Virus record (IMG/VR): IMGVR_UViG_3300034160_000033
Coordinates: 1 to 35,137 of that record
Direction: 5' to 3' (one strand)
Length of the DNA stretch: 35,137 nt
DNA from: a virus
Shown: positions 6,319-30,567 of the stretch, piece by piece
Position numbering within the stretch: position 1 is the first letter of the stretch
How the letters are laid out: each line of letters begins with the position of its first letter
Translations under genes and position numbers: made by a program
Notes under the pieces: model-generated
Seen by the model: only the letters and a program-made list of their open reading frames with translations
The model's database searches: none
What the model was told of the DNA's origin: nothing

Positions 6319-6392
6319 GCTAGTATAGCTCAATGGTAGAGCAAGCCCCTTATAAGGGCTCGATGCAGGTTCGACTCCTGCTACTAGCACCA
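6319..6392 (+). tRNA. tRNA-Ile (anticodon UAU), CCA encoded
   Basis: 74 nt: acceptor GCTAGTA/TACTAGC, D stem GCTC/GAGC, anticodon stem AGCCC/GGGCT around CTTATAA, T arm GCAGG/CCTGC around TTCGACT, then A-CCA. U33 is present. Anticodon TAT reads AUA directly. Most bacteria instead use a CAU tRNA modified with lysidine for AUA, so a UAU isoacceptor is uncommon. It should help translate the AT-rich genes of the phage. Confidence 0.93.
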
Positions 6393-8148: not shown

Positions 8149-8309
8149 ATATCGGTGTAGCAACTACAAAAACTATTGTTCTAAAGCTATCGGAAGAGGA
8201 GGCGGAAATGCTTAAAGCATTTGTGCAAAATCCTCCTACTTCTGCTAGCGCAGAAGTTCGTGTTTTCCTCTCTAGTCTTTTTGCTGCCTTACGGGAGGCG
8301 CTCTTATGA
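8145..8309 (+). CDS. Tiny ribbon-helix-helix-like protein, 54 aa
   Basis: It overlaps the methyltransferase stop at its start (ATGA) and the next gene's start at its end (ATGA at 8306). The pattern TKTIVLKLSEEE, helix, PTSASAE and second helix resembles a minimal CopG-type ribbon-helix-helix domain. It also aligns by eye with residues 8-45 of the gene at 2313, sharing a KLS/RLS strand end, a Leu-rich helix and an SASxE turn. It may be a small transcriptional regulator. It is AT-rich relative to its neighbours. Confidence 0.65.
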   Translation: MNIGVATTKTIVLKLSEEEAEMLKAFVQNPPTSASAEVRVFLSSLFAALREALL

Positions 8310-8911
8310 TTCTCCCATTCGACACCGAAACTACTGGTCTGCCATCCAAGTCGCAACCCCTCAACCATCCATCCCAGCCACACCTGGTGAGCTGTTCTGC
8401 GCTCCAAGTCGAGTCCTCGGGCCGCATTGCTCAAAGCATGAGCAAGATGGTAGTGCCACAAGGCTGGGAGTGGGACGACTCGGAGACGAGCAACGACGGC
8501 GCGTTTCGAGTGCACCAGCTAACCGTTGCGCAGTGCAGCGTATACGGACGCACCGAAAAGGAAGTGCTCGATGAGCTGCTTCACCTCTGGTACGGGCAAG
8601 CAGCAAACAGTCCCGCGACGCTAGTCGCTCACAACTTAGACTTCGATCGACAGCTTATTGCCATTGCCATTGCGCGATACTATCCTGGCGAAGCCGCGTT
8701 GCTTGCTGCTTGGCTCGAGTCATCAGGCGTTTGTACCATGAAAGGAAACAAGGAGCGCGTCGATGCACGCACCGTCAAAGGCACAAAGAAGTATCCGAAT
8801 CTGAAAGAGACTTACAAGTTCTTCATGGGCGAAGAGCTCGACAATCACCATTCTGCGAATGCGGACTGCGTGGCGTGCTTCCAAATCTATTGTGTAATGC
8901 AGGAGTGCTGA
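8306..8911 (+). CDS. DnaQ-like 3'-5' exonuclease, 201 aa
   Basis: The DEDD fold motifs are all present: Exo I is PFDTETTGL (Asp6, Glu8), Exo II is HNLDFD (about 109-114) and Exo III is HHSANAD (about 181-187), giving the DEDDh subtype. The polymerase genes at 10797 and 12159 carry their own (split) exonuclease domain, so this is a second, separate exonuclease. It may act in proofreading, mismatch or end processing, or host DNA turnover. GC-rich core-type codons. It is coupled to small genes on both sides. Confidence 0.87.
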   Translation: MILPFDTETTGLPSKSQPLNHPSQPHLVSCSALQVESSGRIAQSMSKMVVPQGWEWDDSETSNDGAFRVHQLTVAQCSVYGRTEKEVLDELLHLWYGQAANSPATLVAHNLDFDRQLIAIAIARYYPGEAALLAAWLESSGVCTMKGNKERVDARTVKGTKKYPNLKETYKFFMGEELDNHHSANADCVACFQIYCVMQEC

Positions 8912-10608: not shown

Positions 10609-10797
10609 ATGGCTAAGCCAAAGAAAGAAAAGAGTTGGACAGACGAACAAGTCCTAACCATAGTAAAGGCTAATCAACTTGTTGACGTAAACCCTTTCCG
10701 CCCATCAAAATTTGGCAATATTTGTTTTCGTTTAGCTACAGAAGGTAAGTTACAGCATAAGAAATTCAGAGCTAACTGGCATAGATTCTATCTGTAA
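10609..10797 (+). CDS. Small basic AT-rich protein, 62 aa
   Basis: The last base of its stop (10797) is the first base of the polymerase-part ATG (TAATG). The product is strongly basic, beginning MAKPKKEK. The stretch TDEQVLTIVKANQ could be one helix of a small DNA-binding fold. AT-rich. Function unknown; it immediately precedes the UDG-exonuclease gene and is probably translated with it. Confidence 0.72.
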   Translation: MAKPKKEKSWTDEQVLTIVKANQLVDVNPFRPSKFGNICFRLATEGKLQHKKFRANWHRFYL

Positions 10798-11891
10798 TGA
10801 GTACTAATACCAAAATCGTCCTTATCGGTGAAGCCCACGGCGAGCACGAGGCCCGAATCGGTACTCCGTTCGTCGGTCCTGCGGGACAGGAACTCTACCG
10901 ACTCCTATCTGACGCTCGCTTCCCAATCGCACCTCTTCGCAACAACTACGTCTCCCCAATCTCCCTCCACTTCGCTTGGTCCCACACTGACATCACCCTA
11001 CTCAACGTCTTCAACTCCCGCCCGGCCGAGAACAACATTGAATCCTACTACGGTACTCGACGCGATAACATTGATACAGGAATCCCTAGCCGACGTTTCG
11101 GAAGCTCTACAAAATGGGTTCTCGCAGAGCGAGCTCACGACGTTCAGCAACTCCACAATGATCTGCTGCGTCTACGTCCCAATCTCATTGTCCCCCTTGG
11201 GGCCACAGCGACTTGGGCGCTTGGAATGGGAGCTGGTATAGGAAAGCTGCGCGGCTTTGTGCACCAGACTCAATGGGGCAAGGCGCTGCCGACTTACCAC
11301 CCCGCGGCTGTGCTTCGCAACTGGTCACTCCGTGTGCCCACGCTGTTTGATCTTTACAAGGCGCGGCGTGAGATGGAATTTGCGGAGACCCGCTTGGTCG
11401 AGCGTGAGATATGGACCGAACCCACTATCGCTGACCTCTGGCAGTGGTGGAGAGCCTATGGCAAATATAGCAAGCTGCTTGGCTTTGATATCGAAACCCT
11501 TAAAGCACAGCAAGTGACTGAGGTTGGTTTTGCCGCGGACAGCACCCATGCACTACATATTCCATTCTGCATCGAGCACAGGCAAGGTAATAGCAAGACT
11601 TACCAGAGTTGGTGGCCTGACACTAAGACGGAAGTCGCGGCCTGGAAGTTCGTCAAGCATGTTTGCGAGTCGCCAGTACCCAAGATTGGACAGAACGGTT
11701 GCCAATATGACTGCTTCTGGATGGCAAAGGAACTTGGCATTGTTGTGACCAACTACGTTGACGATACAATGCAAATGGCTCACGCGCTCTGGCCTGAGAT
11801 GGGCAAGAGCCTTTATGATCTGGGTGCCCTCTTTCTCGATGAGGCATCCTGGAAGAACATCAGAAAAGACCACGGGAAAGATAATGAGTAA
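10797..11891 (+). CDS. DNA polymerase N-terminal half: UDG-like domain plus partial 3'-5' exonuclease, 364 aa
   Basis: Residues 1-190 match the uracil-DNA glycosylase superfamily (family 4 type): GEAHGEHE (11-18), GTPFVGPAG, and PTYHPAAVLR (about 165-174). No Cys occurs in this domain, so the 4Fe-4S cluster of typical family 4 enzymes is absent. Residues about 225-364 are the start of a polymerase-type exonuclease, with Exo I GFDIETL (about 229) and Exo II NGCQYD (about 301). Exo III is missing here and appears at the start of the gene at 12159. A UDG-like domain fused to PolA is known from phage SPO1. This gene therefore encodes the front of a split polymerase. Confidence 0.87.
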   Translation: MSTNTKIVLIGEAHGEHEARIGTPFVGPAGQELYRLLSDARFPIAPLRNNYVSPISLHFAWSHTDITLLNVFNSRPAENNIESYYGTRRDNIDTGIPSRRFGSSTKWVLAERAHDVQQLHNDLLRLRPNLIVPLGATATWALGMGAGIGKLRGFVHQTQWGKALPTYHPAAVLRNWSLRVPTLFDLYKARREMEFAETRLVEREIWTEPTIADLWQWWRAYGKYSKLLGFDIETLKAQQVTEVGFAADSTHALHIPFCIEHRQGNSKTYQSWWPDTKTEVAAWKFVKHVCESPVPKIGQNGCQYDCFWMAKELGIVVTNYVDDTMQMAHALWPEMGKSLYDLGALFLDEASWKNIRKDHGKDNE

Positions 11892-12159
11892 AATATTACC
11901 AACCCCAATCCCAGAAAACGTTCTTGCTTTCCTCCAAAAGCGGCTCGTTCGTCAAGTTCGTAAAGCTGTCCTTGACAAGATTGTCGCAGAGAAACTTGCG
12001 GAGGTTGAGCAAGAGTTGCGTGCAAGATTGCAACCTGAAGTTGAACAGCTTACTATCGATATGATTAGAGTGGCTGACGATATCCTCAACAGACGCTTTC
12101 AATTACTGGTTGCTTGGAATCATACAATTACAAAAACAGAAGATATTGGTACGCTCTAA
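11884..12159 (+). CDS. Small helical protein encoded between the two polymerase parts, 91 aa
   Basis: ATG 11884 (with GGGAAAG four bases upstream) overlaps the previous gene by 8 bases. The TAA shares its last base with the ATG of the polymerase gene. The product is mostly one long charged helix (many Glu, Arg, Leu and Val at coiled-coil spacing, residues about 15-75). It is AT-rich. No homing-endonuclease or intein motif is seen. It separates Exo II from Exo III of one exonuclease fold. It may be a structural bridge between the halves or an unrelated insertion. Confidence 0.75.
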   Translation: MSKILPTPIPENVLAFLQKRLVRQVRKAVLDKIVAEKLAEVEQELRARLQPEVEQLTIDMIRVADDILNRRFQLLVAWNHTITKTEDIGTL

Positions 12160-14006
12160 TGCGCATCATCCGCACCACAGACCCGCGGCCTACTGACACA
12201 CTTGGCCAGCTCGCATTATACAATGCGATGGACGTACTCACGCTCCAGGAAATCCGCGATGGCCTTCGCTCTGAGATGCGCCCAGACCACCTACGCATCT
12301 ATGAGTTCGAGATGGATTTGCAGTCCGCCTTACTGCAAATGGCATTTGCGGGAATCTCTGTTGATACGCAGAAGCGAGACGAGCTTGTTCATACAACGCA
12401 AGCCGAAAAGGCGCGGCTTGAGGGTCTCATCCACCAACTTTGTGAGGCCATCGGCTACTATGAGTTCTACCGAAACATCAACACAATTCGCTTTAGCAAT
12501 GCTACGAATTTGGCAGCAGGCCAATTGCCGTGCACTTGGGCTGACTGGACTTCTGCCTCACTTGCAGAGCGCAAAGCATGGAAACAGGCCGCAGGCGCCG
12601 AAGCAACCGAGCGATTCCAAAAAAGCCTAAAGGATTTAAGCGCGCCATTCAATCCAAACAGCTCCGCACAAAAGATGCGATTGCTGTACCACTTCTTCGG
12701 CATCGACACGAACGAGATTTCTGCTAATGACTATCCAGACTTTCTCCCACCTTGGGGGCGTACCAAAGGACTCAAGGAAATTCGCACTCGCTCTGCCAGC
12801 AACGAATATACCCCCGGCGTGGATCGTGATTGCCTTGAGAAACTTGCGGCAAGAGCCGGAGACGATACAGGCGAAGCCGCTTATTGGGCGCTACCTTTTA
12901 TCAACCTCTGCACGGCTCACGCCGACGCAGCCAAGACACTTCAATTCCTCAACTGCAAACTAGACGTGGGATGGTTCTATAGTTCCTTTGGCGCTGTCAC
13001 AGAAACAGGACGACTAAGCAGCAAGAAGTCTGCGTTCGGCAATCGAGGCTGGAACAGCCAGAACGTCACGCCACCACTGCGAATCATCTTCACAACCCCC
13101 ACTGGCTACAAAGCCGCGACCCCAGACTATGAGCAGATCGAATCTCGCATGGTCGCGGCACGATGCTTTATGCAGTTCAGCGCAATCCGCTATATGGCAG
13201 CTACAGAATGTGGAGACTTACACTCACTAGCCTGCGCTACTACTTGGGATCATCTTCCTTGGCCAGAGGATTTTACAATTGACTGGACAATTAAGCATGG
13301 CCCGTTTCCAAAAGATATGATAAAGGCGGCTAAAGCTTTAGCTAAGCATGAACTTTATCGCGGTAAGTCTTATCGTGATTGCTCTAAGACAATGGGACAT
13401 GCCAAAAATTACTGGGGTAAGGCTAAAGAAGTGTCTAAACGCTCACATATTCCATTACAATATGTTGAGCATTACTATGAAGTTAATGACGCAATGTTTC
13501 CTGAGATTGGGCTCTGGCACGCCTGGATCATTGAGCAGGTACAAGTCAACCAAGAGTACTCCACAATCTTCGGTCGCCCGCGCAGATTCTTCGGCAGGCC
13601 ATCTGATGACTCGACGATTCGTGAGGCAATCGCCCACGATGGGCAGAGTCCAGCCGCGGACTACACAAACCTCGGGCTTTTGCAGATTCACAAAGCCGCG
13701 CTGCGCGGAGAACTTCCAGTGGATTTGTTCTTGCAGAAACATGACGAAATCGGTGTGCGCTACCGCATAGAAGACGAAGTCCTTGTCACCGCTGCAATGA
13801 CCAAGATTATGGAACAGCACTTCTTGCTGACTGCGCCTAACGGCTCTACGCGAGATTGGTATGTGCCTGTGGAAATGCAAGTAGGGTGGAATCTGGGGCA
13901 TAGCAATGACGCGAATCCAGATGGCCTCGTTGTCTGGCGTGGCAGCGACTCGCGCACGCGGCAACGTGATCCGTTTAGCTTGGCTTTTTTGAGAGGTGCA
14001 CAATGA
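12159..14006 (+). CDS. DNA polymerase I family C-terminal part: Exo III plus polymerase domain, 615 aa
   Basis: Start 12159 is chosen from the TAATG overlap; ATG 12114 would add 15 residues. No strong ribosome site is visible, so reinitiation after the 11884 gene is likely. Residue 21 onward, YNAMD, is Exo III of the exonuclease. Polymerase motifs are intact: A, PDYEQIESR (about 322); B, R-x3-K-x3-H in RDCSKTMGHAKNYWG (about 406); C, HDE (about 528). The motif B position normally Phe or Tyr (E. coli 762) is His. The polymerase should be active. Proofreading would need association with the product of 10797. Bases about 13200-13500 are AT-rich against the rest of the gene. Confidence 0.92.
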   Translation: MRIIRTTDPRPTDTLGQLALYNAMDVLTLQEIRDGLRSEMRPDHLRIYEFEMDLQSALLQMAFAGISVDTQKRDELVHTTQAEKARLEGLIHQLCEAIGYYEFYRNINTIRFSNATNLAAGQLPCTWADWTSASLAERKAWKQAAGAEATERFQKSLKDLSAPFNPNSSAQKMRLLYHFFGIDTNEISANDYPDFLPPWGRTKGLKEIRTRSASNEYTPGVDRDCLEKLAARAGDDTGEAAYWALPFINLCTAHADAAKTLQFLNCKLDVGWFYSSFGAVTETGRLSSKKSAFGNRGWNSQNVTPPLRIIFTTPTGYKAATPDYEQIESRMVAARCFMQFSAIRYMAATECGDLHSLACATTWDHLPWPEDFTIDWTIKHGPFPKDMIKAAKALAKHELYRGKSYRDCSKTMGHAKNYWGKAKEVSKRSHIPLQYVEHYYEVNDAMFPEIGLWHAWIIEQVQVNQEYSTIFGRPRRFFGRPSDDSTIREAIAHDGQSPAADYTNLGLLQIHKAALRGELPVDLFLQKHDEIGVRYRIEDEVLVTAAMTKIMEQHFLLTAPNGSTRDWYVPVEMQVGWNLGHSNDANPDGLVVWRGSDSRTRQRDPFSLAFLRGAQ

Positions 14007-16244: not shown

Positions 16245-16446
16245 AATCTGGTGCGGGAGCAACAGAGAGTTTGCACTTCCGTGTGTCCTTTTTGTCTCCC
16301 TTGCTATTAAAGATAAGATTCCAAATGCGGAATTTTGTAGAGCGCACTCAACCCCACAAGATGAAACCTGCATACGACGGTTGGTGCTGAGAGACGATGA
16401 ACAAGTTCGTGAAGATGAACAACTCTGGAAGCGCAACGATGAATGA
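16216..16446 (+). CDS. Small hypothetical protein with Cys pairs, 76 aa
   Basis: ATG 16216 lies in the second copy of the 15-base repeat, so the product begins MTTY like its neighbour. CEIWC (about 9-13) and further Cys near residues 23, 41 and 52 could bind metal or form disulfides. The C-terminus is acidic and charged. It overlaps the ThyX start by 8 bases. Moderately supported as coding. Confidence 0.55.
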   Translation: MTTYPLTPCEIWCGSNREFALPCVLFVSLAIKDKIPNAEFCRAHSTPQDETCIRRLVLRDDEQVREDEQLWKRNDE

Positions 16447-17170
16447 GATCAGAGTATTAGATCATGGGTGGGTGCGGCTGTTGAACGTGGCGGGGCCAAC
16501 GAGACGAGCAGGAAAATGGGATGATGTTTCTAGCCACTTTAGTGAATTTGATGCCGATGACACCGACCCCGCGAACAGCGCTCGGATGAGCTTCGGCCAA
16601 CGCGACTCGGGCCGTACCCGCGAGCAGGACCTGCAACTCGTCGAGTACTTGCTGCGCAACCACCATACAACGCCAATCGAGATGATCGAGACGTGGTGGG
16701 AAATGAAGCTGCCCATCTTTGTAGCGCGGCAACTGGTGCGGCACAGGACTGTGAGCATCAATGAAGTCAGTGCACGGTATGTGGCGCTGCCGGAGGAGTG
16801 GTACATTCCAGCAGATGCTCAAGTCGGTGGCAAAGCAGCAACCAACAAACAAGGTAGAGGAGAACCTATTGAACCTGCAACAATCGCGGTGTTTCAGCAT
16901 ACGCTTAACAAATCCTGTGCTGAAAGTTATCACCACTATCAGAATGCTCTCCGTGATGGGATCGCCCCCGAGGTCGCTCGCAACTTCCTCCACGTCAACC
17001 ACTACACGCAGTGGCTGTGGAAGCAAAACCTCCACAACCTCTTCCACATGCTGAAGTTGCGCCTGCACCCGCACGCACAGTGGGAGACGCAACAGTACGC
17101 GCAAGCCGTGCTGACGCTGCTTCGCACGGCATTGCCTGACCTTACCAAAATTTGGGAGGATCTTCAATGA
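16439..17170 (+). CDS. thyX: Flavin-dependent thymidylate synthase, 243 aa
   Basis: The signature RHRxxSxNExSxRY is present as RHRTVSINEVSARY, so the FAD- and dUMP-binding core is intact. The start 16439 gives the usual ThyX N-terminus (IRVLDHGWVRLL); ATG 16397 would add 14 residues. The enzyme makes dTMP from dUMP using methylenetetrahydrofolate, FAD and NADPH. With the dCTP-deaminase relative at 20861 it supplies thymidine nucleotides for phage DNA. Its C-terminal helices (HVNHYTQW, LFHMLKLRLHPHAQWE) also fit the family. Confidence 0.95.
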   Translation: MNEIRVLDHGWVRLLNVAGPTRRAGKWDDVSSHFSEFDADDTDPANSARMSFGQRDSGRTREQDLQLVEYLLRNHHTTPIEMIETWWEMKLPIFVARQLVRHRTVSINEVSARYVALPEEWYIPADAQVGGKAATNKQGRGEPIEPATIAVFQHTLNKSCAESYHHYQNALRDGIAPEVARNFLHVNHYTQWLWKQNLHNLFHMLKLRLHPHAQWETQQYAQAVLTLLRTALPDLTKIWEDLQ

Positions 17171-20501: not shown

Positions 20502-20864
20502 ATGAGCAAACTAGCCAACTCCCTATTCACAGTCCCAACAAACAAACTCTGCCCAAGCTATGAGCTATGTCCTGTTACTATCAATGAGCAATGGACAGAA
20601 GACACAATCACCGGATCATATCGCCGTATCTACAACCTTTGTGCTCAGTTTAGTGTGTCAATTGCAGTACTTGAGGGTGATACATCTGGTATTGACGAGG
20701 CCATCAAACGCGGCAAGCGTGAGATTCTTGAGGGTGTCTTTGGTGAGTTTCGCACAGACCTCTACAAGTTGTCACGCTTAATTAGCTCGCAGCAATTGCG
20801 AGAAGCGCAGATGCTAATCGAGCAAATCATTTCTAACATGTACAACCCCGGAGCTCACTCATGA
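20502..20864 (+). CDS. Hypothetical protein, 120 aa
   Basis: ATG 20502, ending ATGA-overlapping the dCTP-deaminase-like gene. The N-terminal 40 residues contain Cys pairs (CPSYELC); the rest is helical, with a charged middle (KRGKREILEGVF) and a helix ending REAQMLIEQIISNM. Function unknown; coupled to a nucleotide-metabolism gene. Confidence 0.72.
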   Translation: MSKLANSLFTVPTNKLCPSYELCPVTINEQWTEDTITGSYRRIYNLCAQFSVSIAVLEGDTSGIDEAIKRGKREILEGVFGEFRTDLYKLSRLISSQQLREAQMLIEQIISNMYNPGAHS

Positions 20865-21484
20865 GCCTTCTCACCTACACCGATCTGATCTCCCTCGTCG
20901 CCGGTGGCATCCTGACAGGTGTCAAGCCGGAACACATCAACGCAGCGTCAATCGACCTCACCCTTGGTGCAGTGCTTCACAGAGAAACACCAGCAAACTT
21001 TGCCAATAATTATTGGCTAGACCCGATCGACCTTGCCGCAAAGCAGTCCATTCACACTCACGAGTTCGTCATGGACGAGTCTGGCTACGTGCTCGAACCG
21101 GGCGAGTTCGTGCTCGCCTCCAGCGAGCAGGTGTTTAACTTACCCGCGGGACAAGAGCCAGAAGTGTCTCCTGACGATGTTCGTCAAACCAAGCTTTACT
21201 TTTGTCCGGCTATCGCAGCCGAGTACAAACTCAAGTCCACCCTGGCGCGGAATGCGCTGGGCCACCTTCTAGCTGGCTGGTGCGATCCTGGGTGGAATGG
21301 CAGCGTGCTAACGCTTGAGCTTAAAAACGAGAGTCGTTATCATAGACTGCTGCTGCGGCCTGGGATGAAAATCGGCCAAGTCGTACTCTGGTCAGGTACA
21401 CCAGTTCCTTCGGAGGCCAGCTACGCAGTCCGTGGTCAGTACAATAATGACCCGGCAACCACGGCAGCAAAAGGATTAAAATGA
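20861..21484 (+). CDS. dCTP deaminase / dUTPase family protein, 207 aa
   Basis: Family hallmarks in order: INAASIDLTLG (about 27-37), LEPGEFVLASS (about 77-87), KSTLARNALG (about 126-135), then DPGWNGSVLTLELKN (about 142-156) with the catalytic-type Glu, LRPGMKIGQVVLW, and YAVRGQYNND near the C-terminus. This trimeric fold includes dCTP deaminases, bifunctional dCTP deaminase-dUTPases and dUTPases. Deaminating dCTP yields dUTP/dUMP, the substrate of ThyX at 16439. Which activity applies cannot be told from motifs alone. Confidence 0.87.
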   Translation: MSLLTYTDLISLVAGGILTGVKPEHINAASIDLTLGAVLHRETPANFANNYWLDPIDLAAKQSIHTHEFVMDESGYVLEPGEFVLASSEQVFNLPAGQEPEVSPDDVRQTKLYFCPAIAAEYKLKSTLARNALGHLLAGWCDPGWNGSVLTLELKNESRYHRLLLRPGMKIGQVVLWSGTPVPSEASYAVRGQYNNDPATTAAKGLK

Positions 21485-22320: not shown

Positions 22321-25300
22321 TTATTGAACTCGCTTGTCGAAGCTCCCATTAAACCGCTGCATGATCTGCTTCATTTGCCCGCGCAGCACAGCCGCCTGTT
22401 CCCCTCGCCCTTGGCTCTGTGCAAGTGTGCTTCGCTTTCGCAAACTCCTCAACTGCTTCTCCGCCTCTTTAGCATGAGGCACTAGTCCCAGCAGTGCGGC
22501 GCTTTCAGCGCGTACTTCACGCGCCTTTTCCCTATCTGCATACGGCCCCTCAGTATAAGCTTTGAGTCGATGCTCTAGTGTCATTACCTGGCTGACTCTG
22601 TCATGGTACATTGCAGAGTCCATTGCGCTGCTTGGCCCGGTGCTGAACTTCCTTAGTACCGGCAGCCTACTCGGCTCAAACTCCTTTGCGGGATCAGTCA
22701 GATTAATCGCAATTCCAGCAGAGTCCGCCACCAGCTTTCCTGTGGCCCCGAAAATTTGGCTTGCCCAAGCGTCAAACGTCGTAGGACTAAAGTTTGCCCA
22801 ACCAGGTGTAACCTTGTCGCCACCTGTCAGCGCGTTAAGCCCCTCAGCCACAGCTTTACTGATTGGGTTAGTGGAGCCCCAGAACAGTTGACTGTCAGGT
22901 TTGACCTCTCCCGGAAACACCGAGGGTCGCATCGGCCGCTCACCTGTCCAGTCTTTGTTCTCCGCGATTGCAATCGCAGGCCGCAACAGGGTCGGCGTGA
23001 TCATCTGTGCCAGCGTTCCACCCTCGATCGGATTGAATGCGCCCAGCGTAGTCTGTACCAGGTCCCCAGCCGCACCTCCGGCTGTCCACCCGCGAGGCTG
23101 CCGCCACATCATACTGAGCTGTTGCCCTAACCGCCACAACACATTGTAACCCCATGGTGCAGGAAGCTTCACAAACTCAGGGCCAACTCCCGTCGGGTTT
23201 GCAAAGATCAGGTTCCGCCGCTTCGTGTCCTTTTGAATCTTGTCCCAATCATCACTGCTCGCGGCATTGAGCATGTCCACCAAAGCGCTGAATGCCACGA
23301 TGCCGAGGGCAATCTTCTGCACCTTCCGATTCTTAATCATTGCGTGCAGCAGCCTGGCACTACCCTGAATGCCGGCGTTAGCAAACATGAACAGAGAGTT
23401 GATCGCCACACCACCCGAGCCGCGTCTGTCGAAGTTCACCGTCAAGTCCTTGGCAATCTCCGCAGCTCGCGCATCGCTAACAGCTTGGTTGCCCCTGCTA
23501 TTCTTTATCTCGACGAGCGCCTTGAACGTGCTTAATCGGATTGCGTTTTCCGCAATCGTATTATAGTCTTCAATCCAACGCTTCGCATTATGCGCATACT
23601 TACGGAAGCTGGCCCGATCTTTCAGATTGTTAATCTGCGCATCGAGATCCTTGGCTTGATCAGCCGCACGTTCATAATAGCTCATCCAGCCACTTGGAAC
23701 CCCCGCGGCCTCATACCGCTTCACGATGCCAATCATCGAGTGACCAAATATATCAGCTTCGAATTTCCCAGTTACAGGGTCTGTGCGCTGCACCAAATTC
23801 TTATTCAGAGTACGATCCCTGTAGATTTCTCTGAGGGCGCCCCACACTCCGGGCAACTCCTTCACCACGTTATTCCGAATCGCGTCCGCTTCACTGTCCG
23901 ACATATTGATCTGGGCTTCCAAGAAGTCTCTGATCTGGTTCGTCAGGAAGAACTCAGGATTCAGACTCGTATTCAGCTGAGCCATCATCCGTGTCACGTA
24001 GGCGAAGCCCATCAGCACAGGTCCGAGCGCGGGCTCGTCTTCGGCCCGTGCCGCAGTAGCAATCTCCCTTGCCATTTCGTTATCTGGAGCCATCTCAATT
24101 ATCCATGGCTCGCCATCCGTAAGAACTGCAATCTCGTTCGGACTTGTGTCGTCAGTGAAACCTGCCTCAAGGAAGCCATCAGCGTCCAAGTGCTTAGTCT
24201 GCTTCTTCTTAATCACTCGCCAGAACTTCGGATCAGGATAAGCCTCCACCATTGCTTTGAGCACGTTCTTGGCTTTGTTGTTCTCGCCCTGAGCAATTGC
24301 CCGAACTGCGGTCTGCACCGTATTCGAGAACACGTCCACCGCGGGCTTGGGAGAGAACTCGCGCAGCTTTCCCGCGCCGCCTGCTCCACCACCCCGCTTA
24401 GGCTTAAGGTCCTCGTAGCCTTCACGTCGCAATGTAGCATAGTGCTGATGTGCGCCGAACCACTTATCATGCATCTCTTGCGTGAGCAGTCCATCGTTAA
24501 GACGATCCGCCAGCGAGACACGATTCATCGCGTCAAAGATAGAGAACAGGTTCTGCATGTCCGCGTCGGTGTTCCACTTTGCAAGCTCCTTTTGTGCTTC
24601 TGCATCCGTCATGCCCGAGGGTTTCTCATCGAAGTCTGTGAACCGCATTACAAGCTCAGGATCGATAGACGTTGGATGCAATGGGGTAGCCTGCCCGGCA
24701 TTAAGCGCTGCCACAAGCTGAGCGTCCCGCGCGGCCCATTGACGAGCCAAGGCGTGCATGGCAATCTGTCGTGCGAGCTTGTCCACCCGCTGTACTTGCG
24801 TACCATTCGTCAGTGTCACTGTGCTCTGAGTCTGCTTCTTTACTCGCTCAATATCATGATTCAGCGCCTTTCGTTGTACCGGGTCACTCATTGAATTTTT
24901 GAAATGATTCAGCCAAAGCTTCGCCGTAAGCCTGCGCCCACGATCGTTCGTCTCCTCCGCAGTGTGTGCATAGGTAGCTTTGTCTAGCGTCTTGATGTAC
25001 CATTCGCGCCGCGCCGCGATCTGCTGCATCGGCGTGACGTAGGTCAGCCAAAGAGCGTCAGTTCGCATCTTAACCTTGCTGCGGATTTTGTTCTGCGCAA
25101 CATAGTAGGACTGCTCAGCAGTAATCGGTGCAGCACCGCGTGCAACTTCTTGTGCGCTGACTTGCTCCTCCCGTCGCTTCTGTGGATAAAATCTGTCCTG
25201 TAGCCAGATACGGAACTGATGAGCTTTGCCTAGGTCGCTAGGTGTAGAACCGAGGAAGTAGTCCTGCGCGGCGTTGAACGTGTCTGCGACCATGCCATAG

Positions 25301-28300
25301 CGCACCTGTGACAGGTCTCCCGCAGGAGCGCGGCCCACAGTGTAAATGTTGCGGTCGTTGAAAACGACGAGATTCGTGGAGAGGCCCGGAGAGTAATCAA
25401 AGTGTACTCCAGTATTTTTCCATCTATTAAGTGTCTGTAAAACCTTACTATTATTTTTTACAGCATCTATATTTAATGCTGCATCAATACTGCCAGCTTC
25501 TTGTACAGCGATAAGAGCACCACTAACTCCTAGCTCAAGTTTAGGAGTAAATATCTTACCAGTCTTATCAAGCAGTACTTTATTTATATTTTTACGACTC
25601 GGCTCATCCCAATGCTCCATCCCTTTGATCCCAATCGAGTCGAGGAACATGGACGCGGCACGGCTGGAAACGCGACCATATTGTTGCCATTGATCTGCTA
25701 CTCCTTGTTTTTCAACCGCAACCATACGCTGATACAACTCTTGTCCGGTTATTTCTTCCCAATTTTCAGGCAAAGCCACATCACCAATACCAGGAATCGT
25801 TAAGCGAGCAGAACCTTTTCCATGTATTGATGGGACTTCAATGGGACCAAGATCTGAATCATCTTCAAAAGTATACCACTCAAGTTGTTTTTCGATCGCA
25901 TCCTTCACCCCCTGTGGCTGCTCACTCAGCGGCTTGTCCCAGTGCATTGTTTCGTCAGGACGCACGTTGACATCGACGCGATGGAGTTGGGAACCCCGTA
26001 CTTGGATAGAATTCTTATTTTTCTGTAACCAAGTAATAGCCTCTTTATTATCCCAATTTTCTAATGCTGTTATAGCTCGCTGTAATAATTCATTTTTATC
26101 CTGTGTATACGCAGAAGCAGCAAATACCTCAGCTAGTGCTCGACCTTTTGGTGACTGATCAGATAAATCTAAAGCATCAATTAGTGCAACATCGTCAACA
26201 AATATACCTTCTTGTTTACGCACCATCTCCCGATAGTGTTCCCCAATCCCTTTCCGCTTTGCAACATAGTGTCCCCAGCTGTACCACTGATCCCCCGCAC
26301 CACTACTCATATATTGGGAGTCAAACTTCCTAAACGCATCCGCAGACCCGTGCCAATGCCCACTCAGCTCCAGCCGCGCCGCGCCATACGCTAGGTCCAC
26401 CACATCTTGTGCAGTCAGCTTGTCAATGTTCGCTACACGCAGCCGCCGCAGCGCACGCTTGAACGCGGACCAGAGCGTTCTGAACCACCGCCCCACGGCC
26501 GTGTCCGCTTGCAGCGCAGTCGGATCAATCCCACGCTTTACAGATTCCTCTACGAAGTAGGCAATCAGCTCTGCATCTTGGTCCGCCTCAGGCGTCTTGG
26601 CACTTTCAACCCGCTGCAGCGCAGCCTTCGCGGCCTGCACCTCAACTGCATCGCGGCTATGCGTAGCCCACGCCTTGATCTGGCGTACCAACGTAGCAAG
26701 TTGCACCTTAGTCAGCACGCTCTCCAACCCAATGTGTGCGCCGAGCTCATGCAAGAGCGCGGCCATCTCGCCCCCGGCGGGAATCCGCGAGGCGATCAGC
26801 GTTGCATGCAGCTTCCCATTGCGAGACTCTACCCAGCCATAGGCGCCACGGCCAGACGAGCCACCCAGGCGTTCTGCAGGAATACCTGCGACGGCAGCTT
26901 CCTCAGGCGTCGCAAAGATGTGAACGCGCCAGTTGTCGGTGGTGCCGAGAATGGACTGTGCTGCAGACTGGAGGGCTTCACGAGTTGATGCACCTTGGCC
27001 CTGCTGCTCCGCATAGAGGGGCATCCCGCGCTGCGCTTCCGTGCGCATGGTGGGAGTAAGGTCGAGGGACCAAACTTTTTGCATACTATCTATTGGGGAT
27101 ACTCCACGAATAATTCCTTGATCATCCTGTGGCTGTACTAATGTAGGAATTTCCGTTACCCCAACCTTCCCACCAAACTTCTTCGCCCACTTGCTGACTT
27201 CGTTTGGTAGAAGCTTGTCATAGAAACCGCGCATCCCTTCGCCGCCAACCTTGAGATCAAGACCACGAAGCGATCCGGATTCTTCTGTAGTATCCGCAAG
27301 TTTTTGAGCTATTTCTTTCCCAAGGCTTGCCGCTGCTTCCTCCATGTTTCCACCGAGTACAACCTTTCTACCTTTCATTGCCGACCAAAGCAGTCTATCT
27401 CCGGTTCCAGTCCAGTCAACAGAGTCAATCTGCTTACTCAAATCATACCGTTCCGCCTGTACCTCCCCCGGTGCCCAGGCCACTCGATCAAACCCATTAT
27501 CCGCAGCCCACTTAATCGCGCGCTTCATCCCGAGCATGGCCCAGGTGGAGGTGGATTTCATGGGGGCGGTGGGTACTCCACCAGTTTTACTCAATTCTAA
27601 CTCATATTCATCAAGTGTTATTTCATTCCGTTCTAGTTTCAAGCTTAAAAGATTTCTACGGTTTTTGGCTTCTTCGCTATTTAGCAAATACCCATTCTTC
27701 CTTCCCTCCTGATGCCAGTCACTCTGCACTTCCTCAACAAACAGCACGCGCTTACCGTTCACATCCGTCCGCTCGTTAAAGCGAAGGTGACCGAGGACGT
27801 TGGGCTCATTCCAGTGGGATGATCTATATACAGATTCACCTACTATTGGTGCCTGGCCAATAGCAAAATTAAGGCTGTCGTCTATTTCTTCTTGTTCTTC
27901 TGGAGATAAATCATCGAAACTAACATCAAATACTCGTAGCGCCTCTGCATCACGCGCTTCCTGTTTTTCATTAGGGTTAAGAACTCGTGCTTTTTTTCCT
28001 AATGGAATCGTAATCAACAGCTCCCGATAGTTGCTGCCACCTGGGACTTGGTACTTGGCGAACTTTGTAGTAGTTTCTTTCTCCATTCCCCGCAAAATAG
28101 CATTTGCTTCTTCCTCTGTAGCTATTCCACTCTGAATATTCTCACCTTCTGCCTCATCCCAAATAGCCCAAGTACCATTATCTTCGTCCTCAACAACCTC
28201 GGCACTGTGCCCTTGTGGTAAAAGAGCGTTAGTTCCATGAACAACCTCCTCCACCCTCACTCCGCCACCCTTGGCAAACTGCTCCAGCTCTGCCTTCGTA

Positions 28301-30567
28301 ACTTGCTCCTGCCCCTGCAGCCAATCCACCAGCCCCATGTCCTCCATTTCCTCAACTTTAACGCCAGGCAGCTTCCCTACCAGCTTGCCTCCAAGCTCCT
28401 GCCGCGTGAGCATGTTCAACCATTGCTGGCCGCTGGCGCGTGGCTGGCGCAATGACTGAATCGCTTCAAGAGTGGTGGAGCGCCAGTTGGGCTCCCCATA
28501 CTTCACATCGCCACTTGGCTGTACAACCCCCAGCTTTCTTCCTGCTGCTGCCTTTTGCACACCCTCCAGTGTCGTCGCATCAGGGTGGGCTACGCCAGCC
28601 TTTGGTTCCGTGAACATCGTGTTCTGTAGATATGCCGCGGCCAAGTTTCGATCCAGCGCGGCCTGCGTCTTCGGATTACCCTGCTTCGCCGCGAAGAACT
28701 CCGCGGCCTTCGGCGGAAGCGCCTTCAGCATCTCCGAGCGCTGCACATCCGTTACACCAAAGTCCTTGTTTGCTCTAAGTTGCGCAACAAGCGAAGCGTG
28801 CTCAGTAGAGCCTCCCGCCGCGGCCCATGCTTGCAGTGGAGCAATGACGGACTGAGGTAGTACCGGCAAAGGCGTGACGTTATCTGTGTGGGGCGCTAGT
28901 TCGTCCGATGAATCTTGACCCCTCTGAGTTAGATCGCCTTGTGTTGCGCTAAGTTCTCCTTCCACTGCTCCTGGCTGAGCCGCCCCAATTCCTTTTGCCC
29001 CTGCATCCGCTGCAGCAACGCCTGGTGTCCCAACGCCTCCGGGCTGTTCCGAGGCGGTACGCAACACAAATTCTTCGTCTCTAATCTGCTCTGCTTCTGC
29101 CCGAGTAGGCACAGCTTCTGCCACAACCCCTGTAGGTGTGACCACATCCCAAGTCCCAGCTTCATTAGGTTGAACATTGATTATCTCTGCTTGCTCGTTA
29201 GTCGTTCCTGTCGCCGCTCTTTGCGCTCCCGCTGCCGTTTGCGCTGCTTGGCTTTGCTCCGCATCTTGTGCCTCCAGGGGTTTAATATACTGCTTAACTC
29301 CACCTTCAGTAGTGAACTTCTGCATGAGCCATTTTCTATCCTTAGAAACAAAAGTCTCATATACTTGATTCTGATCTTCTTGCCTGTGCTGTGGCAGCCA
29401 ATCCTTGCTATCCGGCGCAGGTTGCCCAATGATAGTCTCCATTGGAGCGAGCTTGCTCGTGGCAGGTAGAGCAATCCCCAGGTCCTCCGCGCTGGGCTCC
29501 TTCGGTGTGTTCAGTACCCGCACCGCACCAGCACCTGCACCAGGAATCATCCCCGTCAGGAACGCTGGCGCCATGGAGTTCTTCAACTGACTCCATTCCT
29601 CCGGCGTCTTCGGCACCGGATTCGTCCAGTCAGAATTCTCCTTCGCATAACGTTCTGCGCTTTGTTGAATCAGTTGTTGCACACCCTCTTGCACACCCTC
29701 GACCGCGCCGCCTGCTAAGGCCGCACCACCAACACGAGCAGCCTTTACAAGTTTGGATTGCGCCGCCAGCTCCTTCGCCCGCGCAGCTAATTCAGGATCA
29801 GTCTTAAGAAGCTGCTTAAGCGGCCCCTTGAACCAATCTTCGGCTCCGAGTGCTTTGCCAAAAGCATGGAATGGAATGATCTCTGTTGCGCCAGAAATCC
29901 CACCAGCTATTACTGCGGGTGCAAATGCCTTCTCAGGTCCAATCGTGGGATCAGTTGCCATCTGCCCATAAAAGCTGCCTTGCTCTGCGCCAATCCCAGC
30001 TGTGCCAACCCCGGCCGTGATTCCCGTCACTTGCCTCTTTGCCAAACTCTCAATCGCAGCCTTGCCCGCAGCACGAGTCGCCGCATCCGCCACTACCGTC
30101 TGTCCCGCGCGCTTTGCAGTCAACTCTGCCGCGATATTCACAACCTCCTTCGCGGCCAAATCTTTAATGGCCGCGCCTGCAGTCAGCTTAGCAATGCCCC
30201 CGCCAATGCCGCCAGTCAGTGCAAACGCTCCAAGCTGTGCCAGCCCCTTTGGCACCTGATTAGCCGCATAGTCACCAAGGCGGCTCAGTCCACCAGGTTC
30301 CGAGAACTTAATGTCCTCAACCTTTGGCACCGTGGGTTTCATCCAGCCGCTCTGCGCCTCTTCCATGTTTTGCTGATAACCTGCAAGCGCCTCGTCCCGC
30401 GCGTCAGTCGCCCCAATCGCCTGCGCTCCAAGCGCATACAGCCCTTGTCCGAGTCCTTTTGTCTCCTTCTCAAACGAGCCGAGCGACTTCCGCCACTCAG
30501 GCACAGGAGTATCCGTTGCAGTTTGCAACAGATAGTTAGCATTCGGATCAAGGGTAATAGGTTTCAT
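22321..30567 (-). CDS. Giant polyvalent internal-virion-type protein, 2748 aa
   Basis: The start is ATG at 30567, overlapping the previous stop (ATGA). Residues about 100-310 contain Gly/Ala-rich hydrophobic stretches that could insert in membranes. Residues about 780-1170 contain a domain seen in phage polyvalent proteins (EEVQSDWHQEGR, AWAPGEVQAERY). HELGAH (about 1273), with a downstream Glu, resembles a zincin-like peptidase variant, not a standard HExxH. Residues about 1400-1742, from WHGSADAFRKFD to TNLVVFNDRNI, match the polyvalent-protein ADP-ribosyltransferase pattern. Residues about 2185-2400 (TRMMAQLNTSLNPEFFLTNQ) fit LPD38. Such proteins are packaged and ejected with DNA to act on the new host. 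Last gene of the structural operon. The two mid-protein domains are AT-rich. Confidence 0.85.
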   Translation of the reverse strand: MKPITLDPNANYLLQTATDTPVPEWRKSLGSFEKETKGLGQGLYALGAQAIGATDARDEALAGYQQNMEEAQSGWMKPTVPKVEDIKFSEPGGLSRLGDYAANQVPKGLAQLGAFALTGGIGGGIAKLTAGAAIKDLAAKEVVNIAAELTAKRAGQTVVADAATRAAGKAAIESLAKRQVTGITAGVGTAGIGAEQGSFYGQMATDPTIGPEKAFAPAVIAGGISGATEIIPFHAFGKALGAEDWFKGPLKQLLKTDPELAARAKELAAQSKLVKAARVGGAALAGGAVEGVQEGVQQLIQQSAERYAKENSDWTNPVPKTPEEWSQLKNSMAPAFLTGMIPGAGAGAVRVLNTPKEPSAEDLGIALPATSKLAPMETIIGQPAPDSKDWLPQHRQEDQNQVYETFVSKDRKWLMQKFTTEGGVKQYIKPLEAQDAEQSQAAQTAAGAQRAATGTTNEQAEIINVQPNEAGTWDVVTPTGVVAEAVPTRAEAEQIRDEEFVLRTASEQPGGVGTPGVAAADAGAKGIGAAQPGAVEGELSATQGDLTQRGQDSSDELAPHTDNVTPLPVLPQSVIAPLQAWAAAGGSTEHASLVAQLRANKDFGVTDVQRSEMLKALPPKAAEFFAAKQGNPKTQAALDRNLAAAYLQNTMFTEPKAGVAHPDATTLEGVQKAAAGRKLGVVQPSGDVKYGEPNWRSTTLEAIQSLRQPRASGQQWLNMLTRQELGGKLVGKLPGVKVEEMEDMGLVDWLQGQEQVTKAELEQFAKGGGVRVEEVVHGTNALLPQGHSAEVVEDEDNGTWAIWDEAEGENIQSGIATEEEANAILRGMEKETTTKFAKYQVPGGSNYRELLITIPLGKKARVLNPNEKQEARDAEALRVFDVSFDDLSPEEQEEIDDSLNFAIGQAPIVGESVYRSSHWNEPNVLGHLRFNERTDVNGKRVLFVEEVQSDWHQEGRKNGYLLNSEEAKNRRNLLSLKLERNEITLDEYELELSKTGGVPTAPMKSTSTWAMLGMKRAIKWAADNGFDRVAWAPGEVQAERYDLSKQIDSVDWTGTGDRLLWSAMKGRKVVLGGNMEEAAASLGKEIAQKLADTTEESGSLRGLDLKVGGEGMRGFYDKLLPNEVSKWAKKFGGKVGVTEIPTLVQPQDDQGIIRGVSPIDSMQKVWSLDLTPTMRTEAQRGMPLYAEQQGQGASTREALQSAAQSILGTTDNWRVHIFATPEEAAVAGIPAERLGGSSGRGAYGWVESRNGKLHATLIASRIPAGGEMAALLHELGAHIGLESVLTKVQLATLVRQIKAWATHSRDAVEVQAAKAALQRVESAKTPEADQDAELIAYFVEESVKRGIDPTALQADTAVGRWFRTLWSAFKRALRRLRVANIDKLTAQDVVDLAYGAARLELSGHWHGSADAFRKFDSQYMSSGAGDQWYSWGHYVAKRKGIGEHYREMVRKQEGIFVDDVALIDALDLSDQSPKGRALAEVFAASAYTQDKNELLQRAITALENWDNKEAITWLQKNKNSIQVRGSQLHRVDVNVRPDETMHWDKPLSEQPQGVKDAIEKQLEWYTFEDDSDLGPIEVPSIHGKGSARLTIPGIGDVALPENWEEITGQELYQRMVAVEKQGVADQWQQYGRVSSRAASMFLDSIGIKGMEHWDEPSRKNINKVLLDKTGKIFTPKLELGVSGALIAVQEAGSIDAALNIDAVKNNSKVLQTLNRWKNTGVHFDYSPGLSTNLVVFNDRNIYTVGRAPAGDLSQVRYGMVADTFNAAQDYFLGSTPSDLGKAHQFRIWLQDRFYPQKRREEQVSAQEVARGAAPITAEQSYYVAQNKIRSKVKMRTDALWLTYVTPMQQIAARREWYIKTLDKATYAHTAEETNDRGRRLTAKLWLNHFKNSMSDPVQRKALNHDIERVKKQTQSTVTLTNGTQVQRVDKLARQIAMHALARQWAARDAQLVAALNAGQATPLHPTSIDPELVMRFTDFDEKPSGMTDAEAQKELAKWNTDADMQNLFSIFDAMNRVSLADRLNDGLLTQEMHDKWFGAHQHYATLRREGYEDLKPKRGGGAGGAGKLREFSPKPAVDVFSNTVQTAVRAIAQGENNKAKNVLKAMVEAYPDPKFWRVIKKKQTKHLDADGFLEAGFTDDTSPNEIAVLTDGEPWIIEMAPDNEMAREIATAARAEDEPALGPVLMGFAYVTRMMAQLNTSLNPEFFLTNQIRDFLEAQINMSDSEADAIRNNVVKELPGVWGALREIYRDRTLNKNLVQRTDPVTGKFEADIFGHSMIGIVKRYEAAGVPSGWMSYYERAADQAKDLDAQINNLKDRASFRKYAHNAKRWIEDYNTIAENAIRLSTFKALVEIKNSRGNQAVSDARAAEIAKDLTVNFDRRGSGGVAINSLFMFANAGIQGSARLLHAMIKNRKVQKIALGIVAFSALVDMLNAASSDDWDKIQKDTKRRNLIFANPTGVGPEFVKLPAPWGYNVLWRLGQQLSMMWRQPRGWTAGGAAGDLVQTTLGAFNPIEGGTLAQMITPTLLRPAIAIAENKDWTGERPMRPSVFPGEVKPDSQLFWGSTNPISKAVAEGLNALTGGDKVTPGWANFSPTTFDAWASQIFGATGKLVADSAGIAINLTDPAKEFEPSRLPVLRKFSTGPSSAMDSAMYHDRVSQVMTLEHRLKAYTEGPYADREKAREVRAESAALLGLVPHAKEAEKQLRSLRKRSTLAQSQGRGEQAAVLRGQMKQIMQRFNGSFDKRVQ

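What the first reader, a model, noticed from the sequence alone, without database searches (positions are those of the whole stretch)
10797..14006. DNA polymerase split inside its proofreading domain, with a third gene between the halves
Seen: Exo I and Exo II lie in the 10797 gene, while Exo III and motifs A, B and C lie in the 12159 gene. The two are in the same reading frame, with 270 bases from the first stop to the second ATG. An overlapping 91-codon helical ORF in another frame fills that space. Known: phage PolAs carry the three Exo motifs in one chain. Inference: the halves must assemble to proofread, and the middle protein might bridge them. Alternatively, an insertion (perhaps an intron-like element) separated a once-continuous gene. 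The second half has no clear ribosome site, which suggests coupled translation.
Basis: partly seen in the sequence, partly recalled or inferred. Interest (0 to 1): 0.78.

Follow-up and report, generated by a model that had tools for sequence, protein, structure and literature searches.

The report
Phage DNA polymerase with split proofreading site
A virus of bacteria, together with a whole lineage of its relatives, makes its DNA-copying enzyme as two separate proteins whose proofreading centre can only be complete when they come together; the gap between the two genes holds unrelated passenger genes that differ from virus to virus.

Summary
Gene 10797-11891 encodes a uracil-DNA-glycosylase-like domain plus the Exo I/Exo II half of the proofreading domain. 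Gene 12159-14006 encodes the Exo III helix plus polymerase motifs A, B and C. The same split, at the same alignment column, occurs in cultured Caulobacter phage Kuura (not described as split) and in 163 split loci, 127 of them non-redundant. They form one clade (SH-aLRT 100) beside a sister group that is mostly one-chain. The five proofreading residues are invariant apart from one D to E. Both new ends are conserved: a 'WK...TxK(R/K)(D/E)(E/D)' tail and an 'MxIIxT' head. The two halves are co-inherited (r=0.78). The middle gene is not part of the enzyme: it differs in the near relatives, is absent in 19 of 127 loci, and the window's version has no detectable relatives. The gap (-4 to 4,643 nt) carries passengers: nucleotide-metabolism, HNH and MazG genes. 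The intron, sequencing-error and bridge readings are not supported. Most likely this is an ancient gene fission that left a two-subunit family A replicase whose proofreading site is assembled from two chains. Assembly and exonuclease activity are inferred, not shown.

The parts
10797..11891 (+). N subunit gene: UDG-like domain plus Exo I/II half of the 3'-5' exonuclease
   Evidence: PF03167 6e-20; PF01612 1.7e-4 (just under cutoff); phrog_17 positions 479-799; AlphaFold2 pLDDT 93.9
10803..11351 (+). UDG-superfamily domain (aa 3-185)
   Evidence: 1l9g, 1ui0
11487..11495 (+). Exo I D231-x-E233 codons
   Evidence: invariant in all aligned loci
11694..11711 (+). Exo II N300..D305 codons
   Evidence: D in 66 of 67, E in one
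11850..11888 (+). Conserved W352-K353 and the new C-terminal tail of the N subunit (...KDHGKDNE)
   Evidence: family consensus WK + 12-15 aa ending T-x-K-(R/K)-(D/E)-(E/D)
11884..12159 (+). Passenger ORF, 91 aa helical orphan; overlaps the first gene by 8 nt and the second by TAATG
   Evidence: no relatives in phages or IMG/VR; not shared with the nearest relatives
12157..12161 (+). TAATG stop-start overlap: probable translational coupling of the C subunit
   Evidence: sequence; stop within 20 nt of the C start in 93 of 127 loci
12159..14006 (+). C subunit gene: Exo III helix plus family A polymerase
   Evidence: PF00476 4e-16; phrog_17 positions 805-1237; AlphaFold2 pLDDT 89.5, best PDB matches Bst/Taq PolA
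12159..12218 (+). Conserved new N-terminal head (MRIIRT...)
   Evidence: position 4 is I in 86 and position 6 is T in 90 of 127
12219..12233 (+). Exo III Y21...D25, on the first helix (14-37) of the C subunit
   Evidence: Y and D invariant; helix
13125..13127 (+). Motif A Asp323
13374..13418 (+). Motif B (R406 to G420)
13740..13745 (+). Motif C His528-Asp529

Best explanation
The replicative family A DNA polymerase of this phage lineage is a stable two-chain enzyme produced by one ancient gene fission. The N subunit carries a UDG-like domain and the beta-sheet core of the 3'-5' exonuclease with Exo I and Exo II. The C subunit carries the last exonuclease helix with Exo III, followed by thumb, palm and fingers. 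The chains are translated separately from one operon, the second probably by termination-reinitiation, and come together so that the Exo III helix docks on the exonuclease core and completes the proofreading site. The conserved tail of N and head of C replace the old linker loop and may help the docking. The space between the genes is a tolerated insertion site where passenger genes come and go; the 91-aa ORF is one of them. Shown: separate ORFs, a conserved single-origin split, conserved active-site residues and termini, co-inheritance, dispensable middle gene. Inferred: physical assembly, exonuclease activity, coupling, and the direction (fission rather than fusion).
For: Same split column in Kuura. 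All N-query loci that could be evaluated and resemble the window are split, as are 75 of 75 evaluable loci found with a C-half query; 163 split loci, 127 non-redundant. One clade, support 100, one change. Exo D/E/D/Y/D conserved in both chains. New termini conserved: K at -4 in 103 of 127, acidic -2 in 113 and -1 in 99; linker 17 aa in one-chain relatives against 14+22 aa in split ones. N and C distances correlate (r=0.775, permutation maximum 0.136). Each half folds confidently (pLDDT 93.9 and 89.5), with the Exo III residues on the first helix of the C chain; the C profile begins at Klenow chain position about 169. Precedent: split gp43A/43B of Aeromonas phage 25 co-purify and have DNA polymerase activity (PMC2988022).
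Against: No complex was modelled and no biochemistry exists. The N-subunit tail is predicted disordered alone (358-364 below pLDDT 50). The window also encodes a DnaQ-like exonuclease at 8306-8911 that could proofread in its place, though only the window's subclade has it nearby. Part of the N-C distance correlation is shared phylogeny.
Confidence: 0.82

Rival explanations
1. The split polymerase works without proofreading in cis: the C chain polymerises alone, the N chain is an independent uracil-recognition or nuclease factor, and a DnaQ-like exonuclease proofreads.
For: The N subunit folds well on its own; DnaQ-like protein at 8306-8911 in the window.
Against: Exo I, II and III residues are invariant in both chains over 67 aligned loci; neither chain has a complete exonuclease site; only 4 of 127 non-redundant loci have the DnaQ-like gene within the fetched flank.
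Confidence: 0.12
2. The gene is interrupted by a self-splicing intron, or by an intein acting in trans, and one fused polymerase is made.
For: Introns are known in phage polymerase genes, and this was suggested for the split polymerase of OM43 phages MEP401/402 (PMC10580990). Inteins occur elsewhere in this polymerase in relatives.
Against: No Rfam intron hit; unrelated gap contents of any length and frame, and 19 loci with gaps of 9 nt or less, too short for any intron; both halves have conserved new termini; no intein blocks at the split ends.
Confidence: 0.03
3. The middle protein is a structural bridge or regulator that holds the halves together.
For: It is helical and lies between the two genes with overlapping stop/start signals.
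Against: Orphan; the relative at 67% identity has two unrelated ORFs there; 19 of 127 loci have no middle gene.
Confidence: 0.02
4. Sequencing or assembly error, or decay to a pseudogene.
For: A metagenomic contig with no sequenced twin.
Against: 127 non-redundant split loci, a cultured phage with the same split, and intact catalytic residues.
Confidence: 0.01

Closest known systems
One-chain UDG-Exo-PolA phage polymerases (phrog_17; Microcystis phage Mel-JY34, MW202489, vir526; PaBG gp205; phiLo polymerase, PDB 9qhs)
   Same: Same domain order UDG-Exo-Pol and same motifs; sister clade in the tree
   Different: One polypeptide; Exo II and Exo III joined by a 17-aa linker
Split gene 43 (gp43A/43B) of Aeromonas phages 25 and 44RR, family B
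   Same: Phage replicative polymerase made as two chains from adjacent genes, a variable space that may hold a homing endonuclease; the chains co-purify and have polymerase activity (PMC2988022)
   Different: Family B, not homologous; the paper passages read do not place the split inside a proofreading site, and the case rests on a few T4-like phages
MEP401/MEP402 OM43 phages (Zobellviridae-related)
   Same: Family A polymerase in two ORFs with a small unknown ORF between, in most members of the group (PMC10580990)
   Different: Split inside the polymerase domain, not the exonuclease; the authors leave an intron open
Caulobacter phage Kuura genes 029 and 026
   Same: Same split, same column, two unrelated small genes between
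   Different: Annotated 'hypothetical protein' and 'DNA polymerase'; the split was not mentioned in the passages read of PMC9959647
MIJ3 jumbo phage PolB with split intein
   Same: Polymerase gene in two ORFs with a gene between (PMC6892783)
   Different: Restored by protein splicing; no intein blocks at our split

Membership tests
Family A DNA polymerase (PF00476) | Palm/fingers with motifs A, B and C | tested here: met
   4e-16 above cutoff; residues present; Bst/Taq fold
DnaQ/PolA-type 3'-5' exonuclease (PF01612) | DxE, NxxxD and YxxxD motifs in one domain | tested here: inconclusive
   All residues present but divided over two chains; N half alone 21.9 bits against a cutoff of 23.6; activity untested
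UDG superfamily (PF03167), family 4-like | Fold and GEAxG...HP motifs | tested here: met
   6e-20; G11, E12, H168 and P169 at least 90% conserved; closest fold 1l9g/1ui0
UDG superfamily (PF03167), family 4-like | Glycosylase activity and iron-sulphur cysteines | not testable with these tools
   Activity cannot be tested; the cysteines were not examined systematically
phrog_17 UDG-Exo-Pol polymerase | UDG, Exo and Pol in one polypeptide | tested here: not met
   Domains match in order but lie in two genes
Group I/II intron-interrupted gene | Intron RNA structure joining the two exons | tested here: not met
   No Rfam hit at gathering or E-value threshold; gaps too short in 19 loci
Split intein (trans-splicing) | Intein N and C fragments at the inner ends | tested here: not met
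   Inner ends are a 11-19 aa tail and a head of about 22 aa without intein blocks
Split phage polymerase of the gp43A/43B type | Two separately made chains that form an active enzyme | not testable with these tools
   Separate genes shown; complex formation needs biochemistry

The most novel reading that the evidence does not exclude
A whole phage lineage keeps its proofreading site divided between two chains because the division is useful: the exonuclease/uracil-sensing subunit can associate and dissociate, so proofreading (and uracil recognition) can be switched, with the conserved acidic tail and 'MxIIxT' head as the docking elements, while the intergenic space serves as a maintained landing site for homing endonucleases and nucleotide-metabolism genes.
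Probability: 0.2. Interest if true: 0.82.

Novelty: new variant of a known kind. Interest (0 to 1): 0.64.

Why it matters
Split phage polymerases are known, but as isolated cases cut elsewhere. Here a cut through the proofreading active site itself is fixed across a large, mostly uncultured lineage that has one cultured member (Kuura). This gives a natural fragment-complementation system for a PolA exonuclease, a case of subunit birth by gene fission with recognisable new termini, and a warning for annotation: the N subunit is easily missed or called hypothetical. It also makes directly testable whether a divided polymerase can gate proofreading.

Tried and rejected
Single-sequence searches with the C half found only Kuura in the phage collection and nothing in IMG/VR; alignments were needed. 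Intron search in Rfam: nothing above threshold; sub-threshold hits are chance. Bridge: P0003 searched in phages and IMG/VR, no relatives; its weak Ribosomal_S17e hit is below cutoff and ignored. Readthrough or frameshift: six in-frame stops and uniform frames across loci. The relation of phiLo polymerase (9qhs) to a publication could not be established in the library. Complex prediction and coevolution between chains were not run.

Full report
Observation. The window (a 35,137-base virus record) encodes on its + strand a 364-aa protein (10797-11891) and a 615-aa protein (12159-14006), with a 91-aa ORF (11884-12159) between them. The first matches the UDG superfamily and the start of the PolA 3'-5' exonuclease, the second family A DNA polymerase. 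They match consecutive stretches of one phage polymerase family, phrog_17 479-799 and 805-1237.

The split is not local. In phages, Caulobacter phage Kuura has the two halves as genes 029 and 026 with two unrelated small genes between, and the split falls at the same alignment column (483/484) as in the window. One-chain relatives exist: Mel-JY34, MW202489 and vir526. An N-half alignment brought 80 IMG/VR loci; all in which both halves could be seen are split at this place. A one-chain query brought 80 others, mostly one-chain. A C-half query brought loci of which 75 of 75 evaluable are split with the N half upstream on the same strand. In all, 163 split loci and 127 non-redundant ones. On a tree of 111 proteins the split at Exo II/III needs one change and its 60 rows form one group with SH-aLRT 100. 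This is a quick tree; the root and so the direction are not inferred. Since cellular PolA, the outgroup and the sister clade are one-chain, fission is the likely direction (inference).

It is under selection. Over 67 aligned split loci (one of them, ctLwi270, split elsewhere) Exo I D and E, Exo III Y and D are invariant and Exo II D is kept in 66 with one E. The cut created ends that are themselves conserved: the N subunit ends in WK plus 11-19 residues with K at -4 (103 of 127), D/E at -2 (113) and D/E at -1 (99); the C subunit begins MxIIxT (I at position 4 in 86, T at position 6 in 90). One-chain relatives have a 17-residue linker between WK and the Exo III YN; the split ones have 14 plus 22. 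N and C distances correlate over 115 loci (r=0.775, highest of 1000 permutations 0.136), part of which is shared descent.

Structure. With alignments of relatives, AlphaFold2 folds the N subunit at pLDDT 93.9, only the last seven residues being disordered; its best matches are family 4 UDGs, the one-chain phiLo polymerase (9qhs) and Klenow. The C subunit reaches 89.5 and matches Bst and Taq PolA. Y21 and D25 of Exo III lie on its first helix (14-37), and its profile begins at Klenow chain position about 169. So the exonuclease sheet is in one chain and its last helix in the other. The complex was not modelled.

The middle gene. P0003 has no relative in phages or IMG/VR. The nearest relative (67% N identity) has two unrelated ORFs there, others a zinc-ribbon or deaminase-like protein (judged by eye), and 19 of 127 loci have gaps of 9 nt or less, with overlaps such as TAATG or ATGA. 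Gaps run from -4 to 4,643 nt, median 442. Of 98 passenger proteins scanned, 27 match DUF7768, 17 DUF1937, 10 HNH_3, 7 DUF4406 (families overlap), and single ones dNMP kinase, RNase H, MazG, LAGLIDADG and the anti-CBASS protein Acb1. The gap is therefore a tolerated insertion site with homing endonucleases among its guests. A bridge is excluded as a general requirement.

Mechanism. The best-supported reading is a two-subunit replicase with a composite proofreading site. Separate chains, single origin, kept catalytic residues and conserved new termini are shown. Assembly, exonuclease activity and coupled translation (TAATG here; a stop within 20 nt of the start in 93 of 127 loci) are inferred. 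The precedent is gp43A/43B of Aeromonas phage 25, which co-purify and have polymerase activity (PMC2988022). A complication is a DnaQ-like exonuclease gene at 8306-8911, found near the polymerase only in the window's subclade.

What is known. Split polymerases are known in T4-like Aeromonas phages and in OM43 phages MEP401/402, where a small ORF separates the parts of a family A polymerase cut inside the polymerase domain and an intron was left open (PMC10580990). The Kuura paper reports a DNA polymerase, and no mention of the split was seen in the passages read. A survey of Caudoviricetes polymerases returned no passage on UDG or on split polymerases for the terms searched (PMC11348598). I found no account of a split inside the proofreading site; the library is open-access only. 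I rate it a new variant of a known kind.

Limits. Loci were gathered by similarity, so rare re-fused members may be missed. Metagenomic contigs dominate; hosts are unknown (weak hints from MAGs labelled Acidobacteria, Terriglobia and Phycisphaerae).

Noticed in passing
L009 5001-7703, L017 7229-9937, L011 4989-7754: Intein-like in-frame inserts of about 270-300 aa in the C subunit of close relatives: at motif B (GHG|CLT...GN|SNY) in L009 and L017, and at NxQN before motif A in L011. Pfam gave no intein hit; called from the end motifs.
   Followed up: partly
window 13194-13500: AT-rich patch in the polymerase gene (GC3 0.27-0.37 against 0.5-0.7 around it) lying over the motif-B intein site of relatives; the residue after the site is Lys instead of Ser and identity to L011 dips to 0.47. 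Possibly a recombined segment that removes the insertion target.
   Followed up: partly
L005 (Vibrio phage VS-ABTNL-3), L135, L141, L163, L164, L165, L168: In the sister clade the polymerase is split just before motif A, at least four times independently, some with an ORF between; L143-L146 and L149 have a large in-frame insert at motif B.
   Followed up: partly
L006 2987-3137 (ctLwi270, MW202554): Exo|Pol split with an unannotated NrdR-like zinc-ribbon reading frame between the halves.
   Followed up: no
L148 679-3383, L169 5995-8666: UDG domain separated from the exonuclease-polymerase by about 240 nt.
   Followed up: no
window 8306-8911: DnaQ-like exonuclease (DTETTG, HNLDFD, HHSANAD) besides the polymerase's own exonuclease; seen nearby only in the window's subclade.
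   Followed up: partly
gaps between the halves in L022, L051, L081, L033, L008 and others: Recurring passengers between the halves: DUF7768/DUF1937/DUF4406 (deoxyribosyltransferase-like), HNH, MazG, RNase H, dNMP kinase, one Acb1.
   Followed up: partly
window 22321-30567 (-): 2,748-aa protein matching large phage proteins of unknown function (phrog_14770, 6e-89).
   Followed up: no
window 3940-4015, 6319-6392, 16397-17170, 20861-21484: tRNA-Thr, tRNA-Ile, ThyX and a dCTP deaminase-like protein.
   Followed up: no
OQ067476 (L002) 3889-4998: Kuura_029 is annotated hypothetical but is the UDG-Exo subunit of its polymerase.
   Followed up: yes
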